From the NCBI RefSeq assembly GCF_009900745.1, contig NZ_WXVU01000001.1, forward strand, positions 372,001-436,000: a stretch of DNA of 64,000 bases. The letters run 5' to 3'. The translations under genes and the position numbers were made by a program. The DNA is from Chryseobacterium sp. c4a. Lineage in GTDB: Bacteria > Bacteroidota > Bacteroidia > Flavobacteriales > Weeksellaceae. Numbering within the stretch: the stretch's first letter is position 1; each line of letters starts with the position of its first letter. Below are positions 1-33,756 of the stretch, in pieces. Below the pieces are notes generated by a model, which worked only from the letters and a program-made list of their open reading frames with translations, made no database searches and had not been told where the DNA came from.

Positions 1-245
1 CTTAAATTAGAATCAAAATCAATTTCCTGGTCGAATAAAACCACCTGGATATCCTTATTAATAATCGCAGTCCCACTGTCTGCAATTTCTTTACCCATTA
101 AAATTTTAAGAAGAGTAGATTTTCCACTTCCGTTTTTAGCAACAATGGCAATTTTGTCTCCTTCATTAATGTGAAAAGATATATTTTCAAACAAAACTTT
201 GATGCCGTAAGATTTGGTAAGATTTTCTGCAGAAACGTAATTCAT
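1..245 (-). CDS. ABC-F family ATPase, N-terminal fragment (cut by window start)
   Basis: The reverse strand reads MNYVSAENLTKSYG and continues open to base 1, so only about 81 N-terminal residues are visible. It shows the start of an ABC nucleotide-binding domain: an A-loop region (KSYG) and a Walker A motif, KNGSGKST, at residues 37-44. The absence of membrane segments and the very N-terminal position of the ATPase domain fit the ABC-F group (Uup/EttA-like, duplicated ATPase domains acting on ribosomes), but an ordinary ABC transporter ATPase cannot be excluded from this fragment. The ATG is at 245-243, and a perfect -7 box lies upstream at 285-292. Confidence 0.75.
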   Translation of the reverse strand, partial: MNYVSAENLTKSYGIKVLFENISFHINEGDKIAIVAKNGSGKSTLLKILMGKEIADSGTAIINKDIQVVLFDQEIDFDSNL

Positions 246-28034: not shown

Positions 28035-29339
28035 TTAATTTTTATCAAGCAAAAATCGTCTTAATTCTTCAAAATCTGAATTTATTTCTACAGTTTTTTT
28101 CTCCTTTTTCATGAGGTTCTCCAGAGATTGGGGAATTTCAATTTTTGTTTTGATCGCATTTTCTACGGCATCAGGGAATTTTACGGGATGTGCCGTTCCC
28201 AGAATGAATCCTTTTTTACCTGGGTTTTCTTTAAGGTATTGTTCTAAAGAGGCAAAAGCTACAGCACTATGAGGATCCAGGATATAATGGTTTTCTTTAT
28301 ATACTTTTGTAATTGTTTGCATCGTTTTCTCATCGTTAATGGAATAACCGGATATCTTATTTTTTAAAAGATCAAATTCATTGTTGAAAAGTTCCATGAT
28401 TCTGACAAAATTACTTGGGGCTCCTACATCCATAGCATTGGATAATGTTGCTACAGTTTTTTTAGAGTTAAATTTTTCAGTTTTTAGATATTCCGGAATT
28501 ACATCGTTAGCATTGCAAGCGGCAATAAAATGTTCTGCAGGAAGACCACGGAGGTGTGCTAAAATTCCGGCACAAATATTTCCGAAATTTCCACTCGGAA
28601 CAGCAATAACAGGAGTTTTATTTTCTGTCTGCTGCCATTGTTTTAATGCTAACAAATAATAAATCTGCTGTGGAAGCCATCTGGCAACATTAATAGAATT
28701 GGCTGAAGTCAAAAATAATTGTTCATTGATTTCTGCATCGGAGAAGGCTTGCTTTACTAAACCTTGACAATCATCAAAACTTCCATTAACTTCCAATGCA
28801 TAGATGTTTTTTCCTAATGCTGTAAGTTGTTTTTCCTGAACGGGACTTACCCTGTTTTTAGGATAAAGAATGACAACTTCTATTCCCGGAAGATCATAAA
28901 ATCCGTGAGCAACAGCACCGCCGGTATCTCCTGAAGTGGCTACCAAAACAGTAACTTTTTTCTGCTGGCCTTCTAAAAAATAAGACAAACAACGACTCAT
29001 AAAGCCTGCTCCAATATCTTTAAATGCCAGAGTTGGGCCATGAAAAAGTTCCAACACTGAAATATCATCATTAATCTTTCTCAATGGGATGTTGAAATTA
29101 ATGGTTTCTGAAACAATTTTTTTTAATATTTCAGAAGGAATTTTTTCACCAACAAAGTCTTTCATACATTGATAAGCAATCTCCACATCAGAATATTGAT
29201 GAAGGTTTTGAATAAATTCTGTATCAAATAGAGGAAGGTTTTCCGGGAAAAATAATCCTTTATCTTTTCCTTGTCCTTTTATGGCTGCTGCTTTGAAATC
29301 AACAATTTCCTCGTGGTCTTTTAAATTATAATATCTCAT
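28035..29339 (-). CDS. thrC: Threonine synthase
   Basis: A 434-residue PLP enzyme that converts O-phosphohomoserine to threonine. K107 in FHGPTLAFKDIGAGF binds PLP; VLVATSGDTGGAVAHGF is the phosphate-binding glycine loop; ANSINVARWLPQ and VPSGNFGNICAG are family signatures. The start lies 5 bp after the stop of thrB, and folB follows 3 bp after thrC. It is the last threonine-specific gene of the operon. Confidence 0.95.
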   Translation of the reverse strand: MRYYNLKDHEEIVDFKAAAIKGQGKDKGLFFPENLPLFDTEFIQNLHQYSDVEIAYQCMKDFVGEKIPSEILKKIVSETINFNIPLRKINDDISVLELFHGPTLAFKDIGAGFMSRCLSYFLEGQQKKVTVLVATSGDTGGAVAHGFYDLPGIEVVILYPKNRVSPVQEKQLTALGKNIYALEVNGSFDDCQGLVKQAFSDAEINEQLFLTSANSINVARWLPQQIYYLLALKQWQQTENKTPVIAVPSGNFGNICAGILAHLRGLPAEHFIAACNANDVIPEYLKTEKFNSKKTVATLSNAMDVGAPSNFVRIMELFNNEFDLLKNKISGYSINDEKTMQTITKVYKENHYILDPHSAVAFASLEQYLKENPGKKGFILGTAHPVKFPDAVENAIKTKIEIPQSLENLMKKEKKTVEINSDFEELRRFLLDKN

Positions 29340-29344
29340 TTGTT

Positions 29345-30280
29345 TTAATCTTGTTTAGGTTCTTCAATGATTTCAATTCCTACAGGATTTATTTTGGAAA
29401 CATAGACAAAGCTATCTATATTGATTTCGTCATAGATAGATTTCATCAGATCAGCGATCTTTTCGGCAGTTTCTTTTTCTTCTGCCAACATAAAAATAGA
29501 AGGCCCTGATCCTGAAATTCCGCCTCCCAGAGCTTCAAGCTGAAGACTCATTGATTTAATTTCATCAAATTTTGGAATTAGGATACTTCTTACCGGCTCT
29601 ATAATAACATCGTTCAGGCTCCTGCCAATTAATGCAAAATCATTTTTCTGAATACCAGCGATCAATCCTGCAATATTTCCCCATTGCTCAACAGCACTTT
29701 TTAAGGGGATGTTTTTCTTTAGAATCTGCCTTGAATCAGACGTTTTAACTTCAACCTGAGGATGCACGGCAGCAACAAATAAATCTGGTGTGTTCAATGG
29801 AATGATATCAATGGGATGAGTAGATTTTACCAGGGTAATTCCACCATAAATGCATGGAGCAATATTGTCTGCATGACGGACTCCCGAAGCAAGTTCTTCT
29901 CCAAACATAGCAAAATGTACCATTTCGTCTTTTGACAGAATATTTCCTAATAAAATATTGGCTCCAAGGGCGGCTCCAGCGGCGCTAGCCGCGCTGGAGC
30001 CAAGCCCGCTTCCAGGCTTTATATGTTTATGAATAATGACCTCAAAACCATTTTCCAGATTAAAATGTTCCTGGATTTTTAAAAGAACTACTCCTGCAAC
30101 ATTTTTGGACGGCTCTTCCGGGAGACCAAAGAAGTCTTTATGTTTAATAATGATTTCTGAAGTTTCCAATAAACGGATTTCCATTTCATCATAAGGCTCA
30201 TTGACTGCCATTCCAAGGATATCAAAGCCACATACCAGATTGGCTACTGTAGCCGGAATTTTTAATTTTACTTTTTTCAT
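29345..30280 (-). CDS. thrB: Homoserine kinase
   Basis: A 311-residue GHMP kinase that phosphorylates homoserine. The ATP loop PGSGLGSSAAS is at residues 89-99; IPATVANLVCGFDILG opens the protein; GGGISGSGPSIFML is motif 3. I start at the ATG at 30280. The longer frame from 30325 would overlap the end of thrA and adds residues not typical of ThrB. The spacing to thrA is 10 bp. Confidence 0.94.
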   Translation of the reverse strand: MKKVKLKIPATVANLVCGFDILGMAVNEPYDEMEIRLLETSEIIIKHKDFFGLPEEPSKNVAGVVLLKIQEHFNLENGFEVIIHKHIKPGSGLGSSAASAAGAALGANILLGNILSKDEMVHFAMFGEELASGVRHADNIAPCIYGGITLVKSTHPIDIIPLNTPDLFVAAVHPQVEVKTSDSRQILKKNIPLKSAVEQWGNIAGLIAGIQKNDFALIGRSLNDVIIEPVRSILIPKFDEIKSMSLQLEALGGGISGSGPSIFMLAEEKETAEKIADLMKSIYDEINIDSFVYVSKINPVGIEIIEEPKQD

Positions 30281-30290
30281 ATTTTTGTTT

Positions 30291-32741
30291 TTAAACTGAA
30301 CGGATGATGTCTGCGAAAATTCCACTTGCAGTTACTTCTGCTCCGGCACCGGCTCCTTTTATAACCAATGGCTGTGCGGAATATCTTAATGTTTTAAAAA
30401 TGACAATATTATCTTTTCCATAAAGATGAAACAGATCGCTTTCCGGAGCTACATGCTGTAAACCGACTCTAGCTTTTCCGTCTTTAAATTCTGCGGTATA
30501 TTTTAGTATTTTTCCTTCTTTTTGAGCATTGTCGAATAAATATTTAAAGTGACTTTCATATTCTGTAAGCTTTTCGTAAAAATGTTCTACACTCCCTTCC
30601 ATACAGGCTTCAGGCAGAAAACCAGTGTTTTCAATCTCTTCAAACTGAAGGGGATATCCGGCTTCTCTGGCAAGAATTAAAATTTTCCTGGCTACATCTG
30701 TTCCCGAAAGGTCAAGCCTTGGATCCGGTTCGGTATAACCTTCTTTTTGGGCTTGGGCTACCACCTCAGAAAATTTTCTGTTTCCGTCATAAGTGTTGAA
30801 TACAAAATTTAATGTTCCACTAAGGACGGCTTCAATGGATGTAATTTTATCACCACTTTTGATAAGATCGTTGATCGTTCCTATTACTGGAAGACCTGCT
30901 CCAACATTTGTTTCGAAGTGAAAGCTGCAGTTATGGTTTCTGGCTGTATTTTTTAGAGAGGTGTATTTTTCAAAATCTGATGAAGCTGCAATTTTATTAC
31001 AAGCAACAATATTGATACTTCTTTTCAATAAGCGCTCATATACTTTCGGAATTTCCGAACTTGCTGTAATGTCCACAAAAACAGAATTTCTTAAATTACG
31101 TGCTATAATTTCTTCAGCAAATTTTTGAACAGAAGCTTCCATACCCGATTCATTCCAGTTGATGTATTCTTCTTCAGAAATCCCTTTGTCAGCAAAGATC
31201 ATTTTGCGACTGTTGGAGAGGCCGGCAATTCTTAAATTGATAAAATGATGCTCTCTTAAATATTGATTCTGATTATAAATCTGTTGGATAAGCTTAGTAC
31301 CTACATTTCCTGTTCCACAAATGTAGAGGTGAATCTGCTTGATTTCAGATTCAAAAAATTCTTCATGAAGAACATTCACCGCTTTTTTGGCATCTTTTTC
31401 AGCAACCACAACGCTGATATTTCTTTCTGAGGAACCTTGGGCAATGGTTCTGATGTTGATTCCATTATTCCCCAGGCATCCAAACATTTTAGCACTTACA
31501 CCGCTTCTGCTTTTCATATTTTCCCCTACTAATGCTACAATGGAAAGGCCTGTTTCAATATTGATAGGAGCTATTCTTTTTAAATTAATATCATCTGCAA
31601 AAGACAAATTAATGGCATTTTCGGCTGCTGATTTATCTTTTTCATGAATCGCAATAGTGATAGAGTGTTCTGAAGATCCTTGTGTAATCAGAATAACATT
31701 TATTTTTTCCTGGCTCAGACATTGGAAGAGTTTTGCAGAAATTCCAGGGATTCCTATCATGCCACTACCTTCTAAAGTCAGAAGAGCAATATTTTCCATA
31801 TTTGAAATTCCCACAGCGATCTGCTGTTTTTGATGTTCTGCATTATTCAGGTGATGAGAAATTAATGTTCCTTGGGCTTCCGGATCGAAAGTGTTTTTAA
31901 TTTTAAGGTTGATATTTCTAACCATCACAGGCTGAATTGACGGTGGATAAATAACTTTTGCTCCAAAGTGAGAAAGTTCCATGGCCTCATGATAAGATAT
32001 TTCAGCGATGGGTTTAGCTTGGGATGCCAGACGAGGATCTGCAGTCATCATTCCGCTTACATCTGTCCATATCTGAAGTTCCTCCGCATGAATGGCAGCA
32101 GCAATAATTGCAGCAGTATAATCTGAACCACCACGTCCTAATGTTGTAGTAGAACCTTTTTCATCACTAGCAATAAAACCAGGCCCTATGATAATACGGT
32201 TTTGGTGTTGATTGAAATAATTTTTAAAATTACTTTCAGTACTCTTAAAATTCACCTTTGCGTTGGTAAAATTGCTGTCTGTTTTGATGAGTTCAGCAAC
32301 ATTCATCCATAAACAATCTAATCCTTGATACTGAAGTCGTGCGGCTATAATATTAGAAGACAAAAACTCTCCATATGAGGCAATTTTATCTTTGATTCTT
32401 AAAGTAAGTTCACCAAGAATAAAGATTCCGTTATAGATATCTTCGAGATCATTGAAATGTTTTTTTACAAAGCTGAGTTGGGAACTTTGTTCTAAAATGG
32501 GGATGAGTTCTTTGACAAGGTTCAGGTGTTTTTCTTCTGCATTTTTAAGAAGCTGAAGATAATCTTCGTTTTTAACGGATGCATATTCTGCAGCCTGAAG
32601 CAGAAGATCTGTTACCCCATGAAGGGCCGATACAATAACTACAATATTATTTTTTGCAGATTCATTTTTAACAATGTTTTCCACCAGCAGAATATTCTGA
32701 GAATTGGCGACTGAAGTTCCGCCGAATTTTAAGATTTTCAT
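30291..32741 (-). CDS. thrA: Bifunctional aspartokinase / homoserine dehydrogenase
   Basis: An 816-residue fusion. Residues 1-290 are aspartate kinase (KFGGTS at 5-10; TTLGRGGSDYTAA). Residues about 300-455 hold two ACT regulatory units (ALLTLEGSGMIGIPG, SIVALVGENMKSRSG), the usual site of threonine feedback. Residues about 465-816 are homoserine dehydrogenase (ICGTGNVGTKLIQQ for NAD(P); LSGTLNFVFNTY signature). It controls entry of aspartate into threonine and isoleucine synthesis. The gene is preceded by a 198-nt leader with a Thr-rich peptide, so transcription attenuation is likely. Confidence 0.96.
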   Translation of the reverse strand: MKILKFGGTSVANSQNILLVENIVKNESAKNNIVVIVSALHGVTDLLLQAAEYASVKNEDYLQLLKNAEEKHLNLVKELIPILEQSSQLSFVKKHFNDLEDIYNGIFILGELTLRIKDKIASYGEFLSSNIIAARLQYQGLDCLWMNVAELIKTDSNFTNAKVNFKSTESNFKNYFNQHQNRIIIGPGFIASDEKGSTTTLGRGGSDYTAAIIAAAIHAEELQIWTDVSGMMTADPRLASQAKPIAEISYHEAMELSHFGAKVIYPPSIQPVMVRNINLKIKNTFDPEAQGTLISHHLNNAEHQKQQIAVGISNMENIALLTLEGSGMIGIPGISAKLFQCLSQEKINVILITQGSSEHSITIAIHEKDKSAAENAINLSFADDINLKRIAPINIETGLSIVALVGENMKSRSGVSAKMFGCLGNNGINIRTIAQGSSERNISVVVAEKDAKKAVNVLHEEFFESEIKQIHLYICGTGNVGTKLIQQIYNQNQYLREHHFINLRIAGLSNSRKMIFADKGISEEEYINWNESGMEASVQKFAEEIIARNLRNSVFVDITASSEIPKVYERLLKRSINIVACNKIAASSDFEKYTSLKNTARNHNCSFHFETNVGAGLPVIGTINDLIKSGDKITSIEAVLSGTLNFVFNTYDGNRKFSEVVAQAQKEGYTEPDPRLDLSGTDVARKILILAREAGYPLQFEEIENTGFLPEACMEGSVEHFYEKLTEYESHFKYLFDNAQKEGKILKYTAEFKDGKARVGLQHVAPESDLFHLYGKDNIVIFKTLRYSAQPLVIKGAGAGAEVTASGIFADIIRSV

Positions 32742-32938
32742 CTATTATTTTTTTAAGGTTAGGTAAAGTGAGAGAGCTACTCTTTAAAAAAAGAGTACAG
32801 GGTACCGAAAATAATATGTGAAAATTTACCCCTTTATGGGGTAGTCGTTGTAGTTGTGAATGTAGAAACAGAAGATACTCCTGAAATAGGTGATTTCAGG
32901 ATAGAAATATCAGATATGTTTCTAGAAAAATTCATTGT
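32742..32938 (-). promoter_or_regulatory. thr operon leader / putative attenuator
   Basis: The mRNA leader between the promoter and the thrA ATG. It contains the 33-codon leader ORF (32834-32935) and a 9-bp hairpin inside that ORF (TCCTGAAAT/ATTTCAGGA, 32879-32901). Two mutually exclusive hairpins follow. One pairs TACCCC, from the last Thr-Pro codons, with GGGGTA just after the stop (32827-32843). The other pairs the same GGGGTA with TACCCT (32799-32832) and is followed by a U7 run at 32792-32786. This is the layout of ribosome-mediated attenuation; the exact terminator and antiterminator roles are inferred. Confidence 0.7.
32834..32935 (-). CDS. thrL: thr operon leader peptide (33 aa)
   Basis: ATG at 32935, TAA at 32836-32834. 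The peptide begins MNFSRNISDISILK and ends STFTTTTTTP. Seven of the last nine residues are threonine, encoded by ACA, ACA, ACT, ACA, ACG, ACT and ACC, and four isoleucines occur earlier. The start lies only a few bases after the predicted transcription start. Its position before thrABC and its codon content match the role of E. coli ThrL, though the sequence is not similar. I use the name thrL for function by analogy. Confidence 0.75.
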   Translation of the reverse strand: MNFSRNISDISILKSPISGVSSVSTFTTTTTTP

Positions 32939-32945
32939 AACGGAA

Positions 32946-32975
32946 CAAATGTACAAATTATTTTGAAATAGACAA
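32946..32975 (-). promoter_or_regulatory. Promoter of the thr operon
   Basis: On the reverse strand: TTG (32975-32973), 19 bases, TACATTTG (32953-32946). Both boxes and the spacing are ideal. Transcription should begin near 32939, just before the leader-peptide ATG. Confidence 0.8.
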
Positions 32976-33074: not shown

Positions 33075-33269
33075 ATGAAAAATTCAAAAAAAATTAAGAG
33101 AGAAAATTTAAAATCAATTAATGGAGGTGGACCTGGTAATTGTTATGAAACTTGTCCTATTGGTCCTTATGGTCCGAATGATGTAAGATCATGTGAGAGC
33201 TTTTATAGCTTACCTGAATGTTGTAAAGGAAGGGTAATTGTAAGCAGTGAATGCTTTGGACCCTATTAA
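33075..33269 (+). CDS. Double-glycine-leader cysteine-rich peptide 1
   Basis: 64 residues. The N-terminus MKNSKKIKRENLKSINGG is a double-glycine leader of the Flavobacteriia bacteriocin-like type (K-L-x-R-E-x-L-K-S-I-N-G-G). The core after GG carries six cysteines, including an adjacent CC pair, and has repeated G-P-Y/GPN motifs, ending ECFGPY. Such peptides are usually cleaved after GG by the peptidase domain of an ABC exporter and may be further modified. No exporter, peptidase or modifying enzyme is nearby. It is related to the third peptide of the cluster. Confidence 0.75.
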   Translation: MKNSKKIKRENLKSINGGGPGNCYETCPIGPYGPNDVRSCESFYSLPECCKGRVIVSSECFGPY

Positions 33270-33336
33270 TTTTTTTAATAGAATACAATTATTATACAAC
33301 AGTATTTTTTACTTATCATCTTAAAATTAAAACATT

Positions 33337-33507
33337 ATGAAAACAATTAAAAAATTAACACGAGAGCAAAAGAAAAGTATCAATGGTGGTGCAACCCAAA
33401 TTCAAATTGATGCTTGTGGTAGCGAGCAGCTTGTATGCTTTATGGGAGGAGGTAAATGGGGGTGTTGGCTAAAACCGGGTGGGAAATGTTATGCTCCAAT
33501 GCTGTAA
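33337..33507 (+). CDS. Double-glycine-leader cysteine-containing peptide 2
   Basis: A 56-residue frame, ATG 33337 to TAA 33505-33507. The leader is MKTIKKLTREQKKSINGG, very close to that of peptide 1. The core (ATQIQIDACGSEQLVCFMGG ... GKCYAPML) has four cysteines and is Gly- and Trp-rich, different from the other two. The conserved leader with a changed core is typical of co-exported peptide families. Confidence 0.75.
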   Translation: MKTIKKLTREQKKSINGGATQIQIDACGSEQLVCFMGGGKWGCWLKPGGKCYAPML

Positions 33508-33543: not shown

Positions 33544-33756
33544 ATGAAAAAATTATCAAGAACAAAGCTGAAAGATATTAAAGGGCAACAAATGAGTGGC
33601 TGTGCCAGATGTTCAACCTCAGGAAACTACGGCGATGGCCCTGAATATACTTATGGTTGTATGAGTTTTTGGGGATTATCACCCGAATGCAGAAACTGTG
33701 TAGATGTAAGTGCAGACTGCTATGGCCCCGATTATTCCGATTACTATAATCATTAA
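33544..33756 (+). CDS. Cysteine-rich bacteriocin-like peptide 3, leader lacking GG
   Basis: 70 residues. The leader-like part is MKKLSRTKLKDIKGQQMSG: it aligns with the leaders of peptides 1 and 2, but the GG is replaced by GQQ. The core aligns with that of peptide 1: both have YGP/YGDGP, SF.-.L.PEC, V.VS..C.GP, and six cysteines at similar spacing. So 1 and 3 are paralogues, and 3 may be processed differently or not at all. The terminator at 33822 ends the cluster. Confidence 0.7.
   Translation: MKKLSRTKLKDIKGQQMSGCARCSTSGNYGDGPEYTYGCMSFWGLSPECRNCVDVSADCYGPDYSDYYNH

What the first reader, a model, noticed from the sequence alone, without database searches (positions are those of the whole stretch)
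32742..32975. thr operon attenuator with a six-threonine leader peptide in a flavobacterium
An ideal promoter (TTG-19-TACATTTG) is followed by a 33-codon ORF ending STFTTTTTTP and then thrA-thrB-thrC. The ORF has seven Thr codons, six of them consecutive, and four Ile codons. A 9-bp hairpin lies inside it, and two mutually exclusive hairpins compete for GGGGTA (32827-32832), one with a following U7. Established: E. coli thrL works this way with Thr and Ile codons. Inferred: ribosome stalling at the Thr run selects between the hairpins. Which hairpin terminates is not clear, because the stop codon lies in the loop of the first. I cannot tell whether this leader has been described in Bacteroidota.
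Basis: partly seen in the sequence, partly recalled or inferred. Interest (0 to 1): 0.75.

Follow-up and report, generated by a model that had tools for sequence, protein, structure and literature searches.

The report
Threonine leader switch lacking ordinary terminator
In front of the threonine genes of a Chryseobacterium lies a tiny gene full of threonine codons that very probably senses threonine shortage; it ends in an RNA element shared with distant relatives that shows no ordinary stop signal for transcription, so how it switches the genes off is open.

Summary
Conservation makes a threonine-sensing leader very likely: of 66 leader regions chosen by ThrA protein alone, 65 have the hairpin at the stop codon and 62 a run of three or more Thr; over 112 leaders the six codons next to that hairpin are 74-99% Thr (2-16% further upstream). 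The in-ORF hairpin covaries. Instead the ORF ends in a conserved element: ACCCC-loop-GGGGT hairpin holding or touching the stop codon, 9-11 nt, ACAUAU, then a second hairpin. The motif lies almost only upstream of thrA (31 of 196 order genomes, reversed control 0; also 7 genomes of another class). Not in Rfam. I call it a variant of leader-peptide attenuation whose OFF step is not an ordinary terminator, perhaps Rho or a polymerase pause. Leader attenuation as a kind is already reported for Flavobacterium.

The parts
32946..32975 (-). Bacteroidota-type promoter, TTG-19-TACATTTG
   Evidence: TAnnTTTG present upstream of 99 of 111 leaders vs 7.1% of random stretches, full TTG-17..21-TAnnTTTG in 61 of 111 vs 1.0%. 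The consensus itself is recalled.
32834..32935 (-). Leader ORF, 33 codons plus stop, seven Thr (six consecutive) and four Ile codons
   Evidence: in 112 leaders mean 6.1 Thr in the last 11 codons, ATG in frame in 108; Thr by position.
32879..32901 (-). Hairpin A inside the ORF (9 bp)
   Evidence: 30 leaders, 8 pairs counted: 87.4% of cells paired; 5 pairs changed on both sides (20 of 500 shuffles reach that), 30 such cells (0 of 500); slid controls 1-7 cells.
32827..32843 (-). Hairpin B TACCCC/GGGGTA with the leader stop codon in its loop
   Evidence: 65 of 66 leader regions chosen by ThrA protein match ACCCC-N2-6-GGGGT; the 66th, L001, has TCCCC. CCCC:GGGG never varies in 48 rows, so it gives no covariation.
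32814..32819 (-). Conserved ACATAT 9 nt after GGGG (9-11 in relatives)
   Evidence: 105 of 112 leaders have ACATAT at gap 9, 10 or 11; 63 of 66 regions chosen by ThrA protein match the whole pattern.
32778..32797 (-). Hairpin E TACTCTTT-TTTT-AAAGAGTA, no U-run directly behind it
   Evidence: Sought within 52 nt behind ACATAT: some hairpin in 108 of 112 leaders, 99 at -4 kcal/mol or better; folding z against 60 shuffles each, mean -2.2 over 106, below -2 in 64; pair counts; the Chryseobacterium sequence form in 59 of 66.
32742..32777 (-). G-poor stretch up to thrA (possible Rho loading site, inferred)
   Evidence: From ACATAT to thrA, C 18.6% and G 9.6%, C>G in 77 of 83 leaders with 50-130 nt there; 29 control upstream regions of the window 13.4% and 12.5%.
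30291..32741 (-). thrA, bifunctional aspartate kinase/homoserine dehydrogenase I
   Evidence: NF006959, 990 bits, cut-off 726.
29345..30325 (-). thrB, homoserine kinase
   Evidence: NF002288, 371.5 bits, cut-off 194.
28035..29339 (-). thrC, threonine synthase
   Evidence: TIGR00260, 296.4 bits, cut-off 167.1.

Best explanation
This is a leader-peptide attenuator of the thrABC operon that reads the supply of threonyl-tRNA (and to a lesser degree isoleucyl-tRNA), in a variant without a visible intrinsic terminator. Shown by conservation: the short ORF, its Thr codons set directly against hairpin B, hairpin A, hairpin B around or beside the stop codon, ACAUAU at nearly fixed distance, and a further hairpin E. 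Inferred: when threonine is scarce the ribosome stalls on the Thr run and covers the 5' arm of hairpin B, so B cannot form and RNA polymerase goes on into thrA; when threonine is plentiful the ribosome reaches the stop codon and leaves, hairpins B and E form, and transcription stops before thrA. Since no U-tailed hairpin is seen, I think the stop is made by Rho on the free G-poor RNA behind the leader, or by polymerase held at a pause made of hairpin B and ACAUAU. That threonine sensing takes place I put at about 0.9; that the OFF step is not intrinsic termination at about 0.65; Rho in particular at about 0.35.
For: Thr content rises from 2-16% (10 to 25 codons upstream) to 74-99% in the six codons next to hairpin B; 112 leaders, ATG in frame in 108. 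Hairpin A covaries. The pattern ACCCC-N2-6-GGGGT-N7-11-ACATAT: one place in the own genome, 31 of 196 order genomes, one each, none in the reversed control; 30 of 296 phylum genomes with 31 places, reversed control none. Of the 38 loci fetched for these hits (L181-L218), 37 have the start of a ThrA 86-720 nt downstream, L218 does not. Seven genomes of family f37, another class, carry it before thrA with Thr/Ile leaders. Terminator contrast: 21 of 21 hand-picked type I leaders, 1 of 112 type II, at -8 kcal/mol or better. C>G. Rho is encoded in the genome.
Against: No expression data at all. Neither the 2:3 alternative pairing nor any other switch partner is established, so mutual exclusion rests on inference. 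Hairpin E covaries only weakly within Chryseobacterium (2 pairs changed on both sides, reached by 276 of 500 shuffles; 6 such cells, reached by 6 of 500) and RNAalifold predicted only hairpin B in both alignments. The C>G signal is modest: the window ranks 3 of 29, its own region included. ACAUAU has no known reader.
Confidence: 0.62

Rival explanations
1. Classical attenuator: GGGGTA pairs either with TACCCC or with the downstream TACCC, and a hairpin before U7 terminates.
For: Both pairings exist in the window (window p 0.08); a stem of 5 or more pairs can be drawn in 68 of 71 Chryseobacterium leaders and 35 of 40 others; other genera have textbook Thr/Ile leaders with U-tailed terminators at the same operon; a U-run lies inside hairpin E in most of the 49 rows of A1.
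Against: Pairing not better than shuffles in most leaders nor matched between strands; best hairpin before a U-run -1.9 kcal/mol in the window, 1 of 112 at -8 or better; some leaders have no U-run in E (L077, L079, L145).
Confidence: 0.15
2. The leader controls initiation of thrA translation or mRNA stability: hairpin E or the window's TATTATTTT:AAAAATAATA pairing hides the start region until a stalled ribosome changes the fold.
For: The window's best fold pairs the stretch just before thrA with the region behind ACATAT.
Against: From the start of the pattern to the ThrA start the distance runs from 86 to 201 nt, and 720 in L195 (37 loci), so E is not held near the start; the AT pairing is missing by eye in some relatives, for example L009 and L020.
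Confidence: 0.15
3. Hairpin E is itself a terminator that needs no U-tail, in a classical layout where strand 2 (GGGGTA) pairs with the 5' arm of E under starvation.
For: It is where strand 3:4 would be; strand 2 can pair with its 5' arm by 6 bp in the window (-5.0 kcal/mol), and in L109-L113 GGGGTATA pairs with TATACTTT by 8 (p 0.08-0.27).
Against: E is weak in the f37 genomes tested (4-5 bp); matched 2:3 pairs not favoured (p 0.19, though the arms taken there for Flavobacteriaceae leave out TATA). U-less terminators are recalled as disputed.
Confidence: 0.1

Closest known systems
E. coli thr operon leader (thrL; Rfam has a Thr_leader family, recalled)
   Same: Thr and Ile codons in a short ORF between promoter and thrABC; same genes (E. 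coli side recalled).
   Different: The window has no Rfam match to such a family at gathering score or at E<=10 and no U-tailed terminator by my test.
Type I thr leaders of other genera (tested: L086, L094, L096, L097, L155-L167, L169, L170, L172, L173; by eye only: L224, L225, L228)
   Same: Same operon, Thr/Ile leader, same phylum.
   Different: They carry a strong U-tailed hairpin (21 of 21 hand-picked, median -16.5 kcal/mol) and by eye lack the CCCC/GGGG-ACATAT element.
Leader-peptide attenuation in Flavobacterium psychrophilum (PMC9723704); leader-like sORFs in Bacteroides thetaiotaomicron (PMC7366714)
   Same: Passages report strong clues for leader-peptide attenuation upstream of amino-acid biosynthesis operons and long 5' UTRs with sORFs reminiscent of attenuation leaders.
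   Different: The passages name no thr operon and no terminator-less element; supplements were not open to me.
Actinobacterial cys leaders and LEU element (PMC1262725)
   Same: Leader peptides with cognate codons but no clear terminator; Rho proposed for cys (passages).
   Different: Other phylum, other genes; the LEU element pairs its Leu codons with the Shine-Dalgarno site, which I did not see here.

Membership tests
Ribosome-mediated amino-acid attenuators | Short ORF with a cluster of cognate codons ahead of the biosynthetic genes | tested here: met
   translation itself not shown.
Ribosome-mediated amino-acid attenuators | Promoter upstream so that leader and genes share a transcript | tested here: met
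   Promoter motif enriched; no transcript data.
Ribosome-mediated amino-acid attenuators | Mutually exclusive antiterminator and terminator structures | tested here: inconclusive
   Hairpins A and B conserved, E less surely; alternative 2:3 pairing not established.
Ribosome-mediated amino-acid attenuators | Intrinsic terminator (hairpin plus U-tract) before the first gene | tested here: not met
   Window -1.9 kcal/mol; 1 of 112 at -8 or better, 8 at -5 or better.
Ribosome-mediated amino-acid attenuators | Expression rises on limitation of the amino acid | not testable with these tools
   Needs an experiment.
Rfam Thr_leader | Scores above the family's gathering cut-off | tested here: not met
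LEU element | Cognate codons pair with the ribosome binding site of the gene, pseudoknot | not tested
   Looked at by eye only in the sequences; none seen.

The most novel reading that the evidence does not exclude
Hairpin B, the 9-11 nt gap and ACAUAU form a new kind of attenuation signal, read directly by RNA polymerase, Rho or an unknown RNA-binding protein and present in at least two classes of the phylum, in which a stalled ribosome switches genes on without any intrinsic terminator.
Probability: 0.3. Interest if true: 0.75.

Novelty: new variant of a known kind. Interest (0 to 1): 0.55.

Why it matters
Attenuation is understood mainly through U-tailed terminators (recalled). Here one operon in one phylum uses two builds, one textbook and one without a visible terminator but with a sequence signal kept across classes. 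That makes it directly testable how a leader ribosome can stop transcription in Bacteroidota, and gives a motif by which thr control can be annotated in many genomes.

Tried and rejected
Rfam at gathering score and at E<=10: no related family. Competition for GGGGTA: tested by shuffles and by matched versus mismatched strands, not established; limit: the E arms found for Flavobacteriaceae leave out the TATA part that pairs with GGGGTATA. U7 terminator: not supported. ACATAT as a common element of other leaders in the same genome: TTTTCACATATNAT has four places (reversed control one); besides thr, the other three show by eye no Thr run and no CCCC/GGGG hairpin beside the motif, and the full pattern has one place. 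RNAalifold gives hairpin B only. Two pattern hits are not at a thr operon that I found: L218, and a second place in G420 that I did not fetch and that lies on another contig than the ThrA; one order hit (G116) got no locus.

Selection to bear in mind. The type I set of 21 was picked by eye, so its 21 of 21 is a contrast, not a rate. The type II set of 112 was found by a hairpin-plus-motif expression in thrA upstream regions (105 after removing identical ones; one of them, L195, came from a pattern hit) plus 7 pattern hits of family f37, so counts of B and ACATAT within it lean upward; the 66 regions (65 loci, 64 titled Chryseobacterium and one Weeksellaceae, plus the window) were chosen by ThrA protein alone. 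Of 174 protein-chosen upstream regions, some genomes twice, 109 match a loose form of the element. A1 holds 49 and A2 21 of the 105 rows and A3 covers 30 leaders, chosen by me; the L001 row of A1 is cut inside hairpin B and L020 is shifted in A3. One search dropped 6, one search dropped 29, one search dropped 1 and one search dropped 4 of 112. The search for E was confined to starts 4-23 nt behind ACATAT. thrA of eight reduced genomes of family f16, four of f15 and some Flavobacteriaceae show no leader by eye.

Literature: ten searches listed no paper that I recognised as describing this element; I opened passages of PMC4833913, PMC9723704, PMC7366714, PMC1262725 and PMC9291695 only. The most relevant study, Lopatovskaya et al. 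2010 (seen only as a reference), is not held, so earlier prediction of Bacteroidota thr attenuators cannot be excluded.

Full report
The window is from a Chryseobacterium close to C. jejuense (ThrA 90% identical). The Thr run is the only run of five or more Thr in the six-frame translation of the window, and the leader folds far better than shuffled sequence (z -4.5).

Conservation. A protein search with ThrA gave 65 loci, 64 titled Chryseobacterium and one Weeksellaceae. Together with the window they make 66 regions: 65 match ACCCC-N2-6-GGGGT (L001 has TCCCC), 63 the whole pattern up to ACATAT, and 59 the Chryseobacterium form of hairpin E; one region (L043) is cut at 180 bases. A run of three or more Thr was found by machine in 62 of the 66; the exceptions L016, L041, L042 and L043 have Thr mixed with Ile, Ser or other codons by eye. 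With relatives from the family and order and seven pattern hits of another class I worked with 112 leaders of this type. Thr makes up 74-99% of the six codons next to hairpin B, counting its own ACC, 14-47% at positions 6 to 9 and 2-16% at positions 10 to 25. Ninety-six of 112 end in Thr-Pro-stop, and ATG is in frame in 108. Hairpin A inside the ORF has changes on both sides in 5 of 8 pairs (20 of 500 shuffles reach that) and in 30 cells (0 of 500; slid controls 1-7).

Two builds. At the same operon, other genera of the family and of the class carry textbook leaders with a strong U-tailed terminator (type I). Chryseobacterium, many Flavobacteriaceae-like genomes (family f3) and some others have a different end (type II): hairpin B with the stop codon in the loop or just behind it, 9-11 nt, ACATAT, then a hairpin E that starts 24-38 nt after the first G of GGGG in 33 representatives, within a search that was confined to that neighbourhood. 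I scored the best hairpin ending within 3 nt of a U-run: 21 of 21 hand-picked type I leaders reach -8 kcal/mol, median -16.5; of 112 type II leaders 1 does (L052, a hairpin that contains E), 8 reach -5, and the window has -1.9.

The alternative pairing. A stem of 5 or more pairs between the GGGG strand and the stretch behind ACATAT can be drawn in 68 of 71 Chryseobacterium leaders and 35 of 40 others, but shuffled stretches do nearly as well: p<=0.05 in 4 of 71 and 0 of 40; the window has p 0.08. I also tried GGGGTA against the 5' arm of hairpin E, which would give a classical 1:2, 2:3, 3:4 layout; the window has 6 such pairs at -5.0 kcal/mol, but own pairs are not better than pairs taken across species (mean -2.43 against -2.33, p 0.19). 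That test took short E arms for Flavobacteriaceae, whose GGGGTATA:TATACTTT pairing (8 pairs, p 0.08-0.27 in L109-L113) it does not cover. A switch by mutual exclusion is therefore neither shown nor excluded.

A motif of thr operons. ACCCC-N2-6-GGGGT-N7-11-ACATAT occurs once in the own genome, in 31 of 196 genomes of the order with one place each and no hit of the reversed pattern, and in 30 of 296 genomes of the phylum with 31 places, reversed pattern none. Of the 38 loci fetched for these hits, 37 have a ThrA start 86-720 nt downstream; L218 has none. A second place in G420 and the place in G116 were not fetched by these calls. Family f37, which is not in the same class (its name is withheld), has seven such genomes, with leaders such as ...STTTTITTP. 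L219 of another family of the class has a near form with TTATAT in place of ACATAT. Rfam has no family for it that scores.

How it may work. Stalling on Thr codons that abut hairpin B would place a ribosome over the 5' arm of B (inferred from the recalled footprint of about 15 nt ahead of the A site). Fast passage would free the RNA behind the stop codon. That RNA is G-poor (C 18.6%, G 9.6%, C>G in 77 of 83, against 13.4% and 12.5% in 29 control regions), the genome encodes Rho, and Rho was proposed for actinobacterial cys leaders by analogy with tna of E. coli (passages of PMC1262725). The other idea is that B plus ACAUAU is a hairpin-stabilised polymerase pause; the gap of 9-11 nt would suit that by recollection of the E. 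coli his pause, but the passages I saw of a paper on pausing (PMC9291695) gave no distance to compare with.

Novelty. Leader-peptide attenuation in flavobacteria is already reported (passage of PMC9723704; the passage names no operon), leader-like sORFs are noted in Bacteroides (passage of PMC7366714), and leaders without clear terminators are known in Actinobacteria. Ten searches listed no paper that I recognised as describing this thr element, but a comparative study that may cover it was not held. I therefore rate it a new variant of a known kind.

Noticed in passing
33075-33507 (+): Two small genes divergent from the thr operon whose N-terminal leader matches NCBIfam NF047798 'bacteriocin-like protein' (leader_Chryseo); a third, 33544-33756, has no family match at E<=0.01.
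   Followed up: partly
32912-32920 (-) and relatives: AACATATCT near the start of the leader ORF is nearly invariant in the 66-row Chryseobacterium alignment and shares ACATAT with the conserved motif behind the ORF.
   Followed up: no
112 leaders, last 12 codons: Ile codons there are ATT in 154 of 163 cases; genome codon use was not compared.
   Followed up: no
32933-32953 (-): The leader ATG lies 10 bases behind the -7 box, so the transcript should be nearly leaderless (start site recalled, not mapped).
   Followed up: no
L077, L079, L080 (same family): Between ACATAT and hairpin E, L077 and L079 have a perfect 7-bp hairpin CAACATT-CGC-AATGTTG (one changed base in L080) that Chryseobacterium lacks by eye.
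   Followed up: no
L223 (class, family f22): A Thr-rich leader ending RTTTTG with ACGGGGTAACCCGT behind the Thr run, possibly a third build.
   Followed up: no
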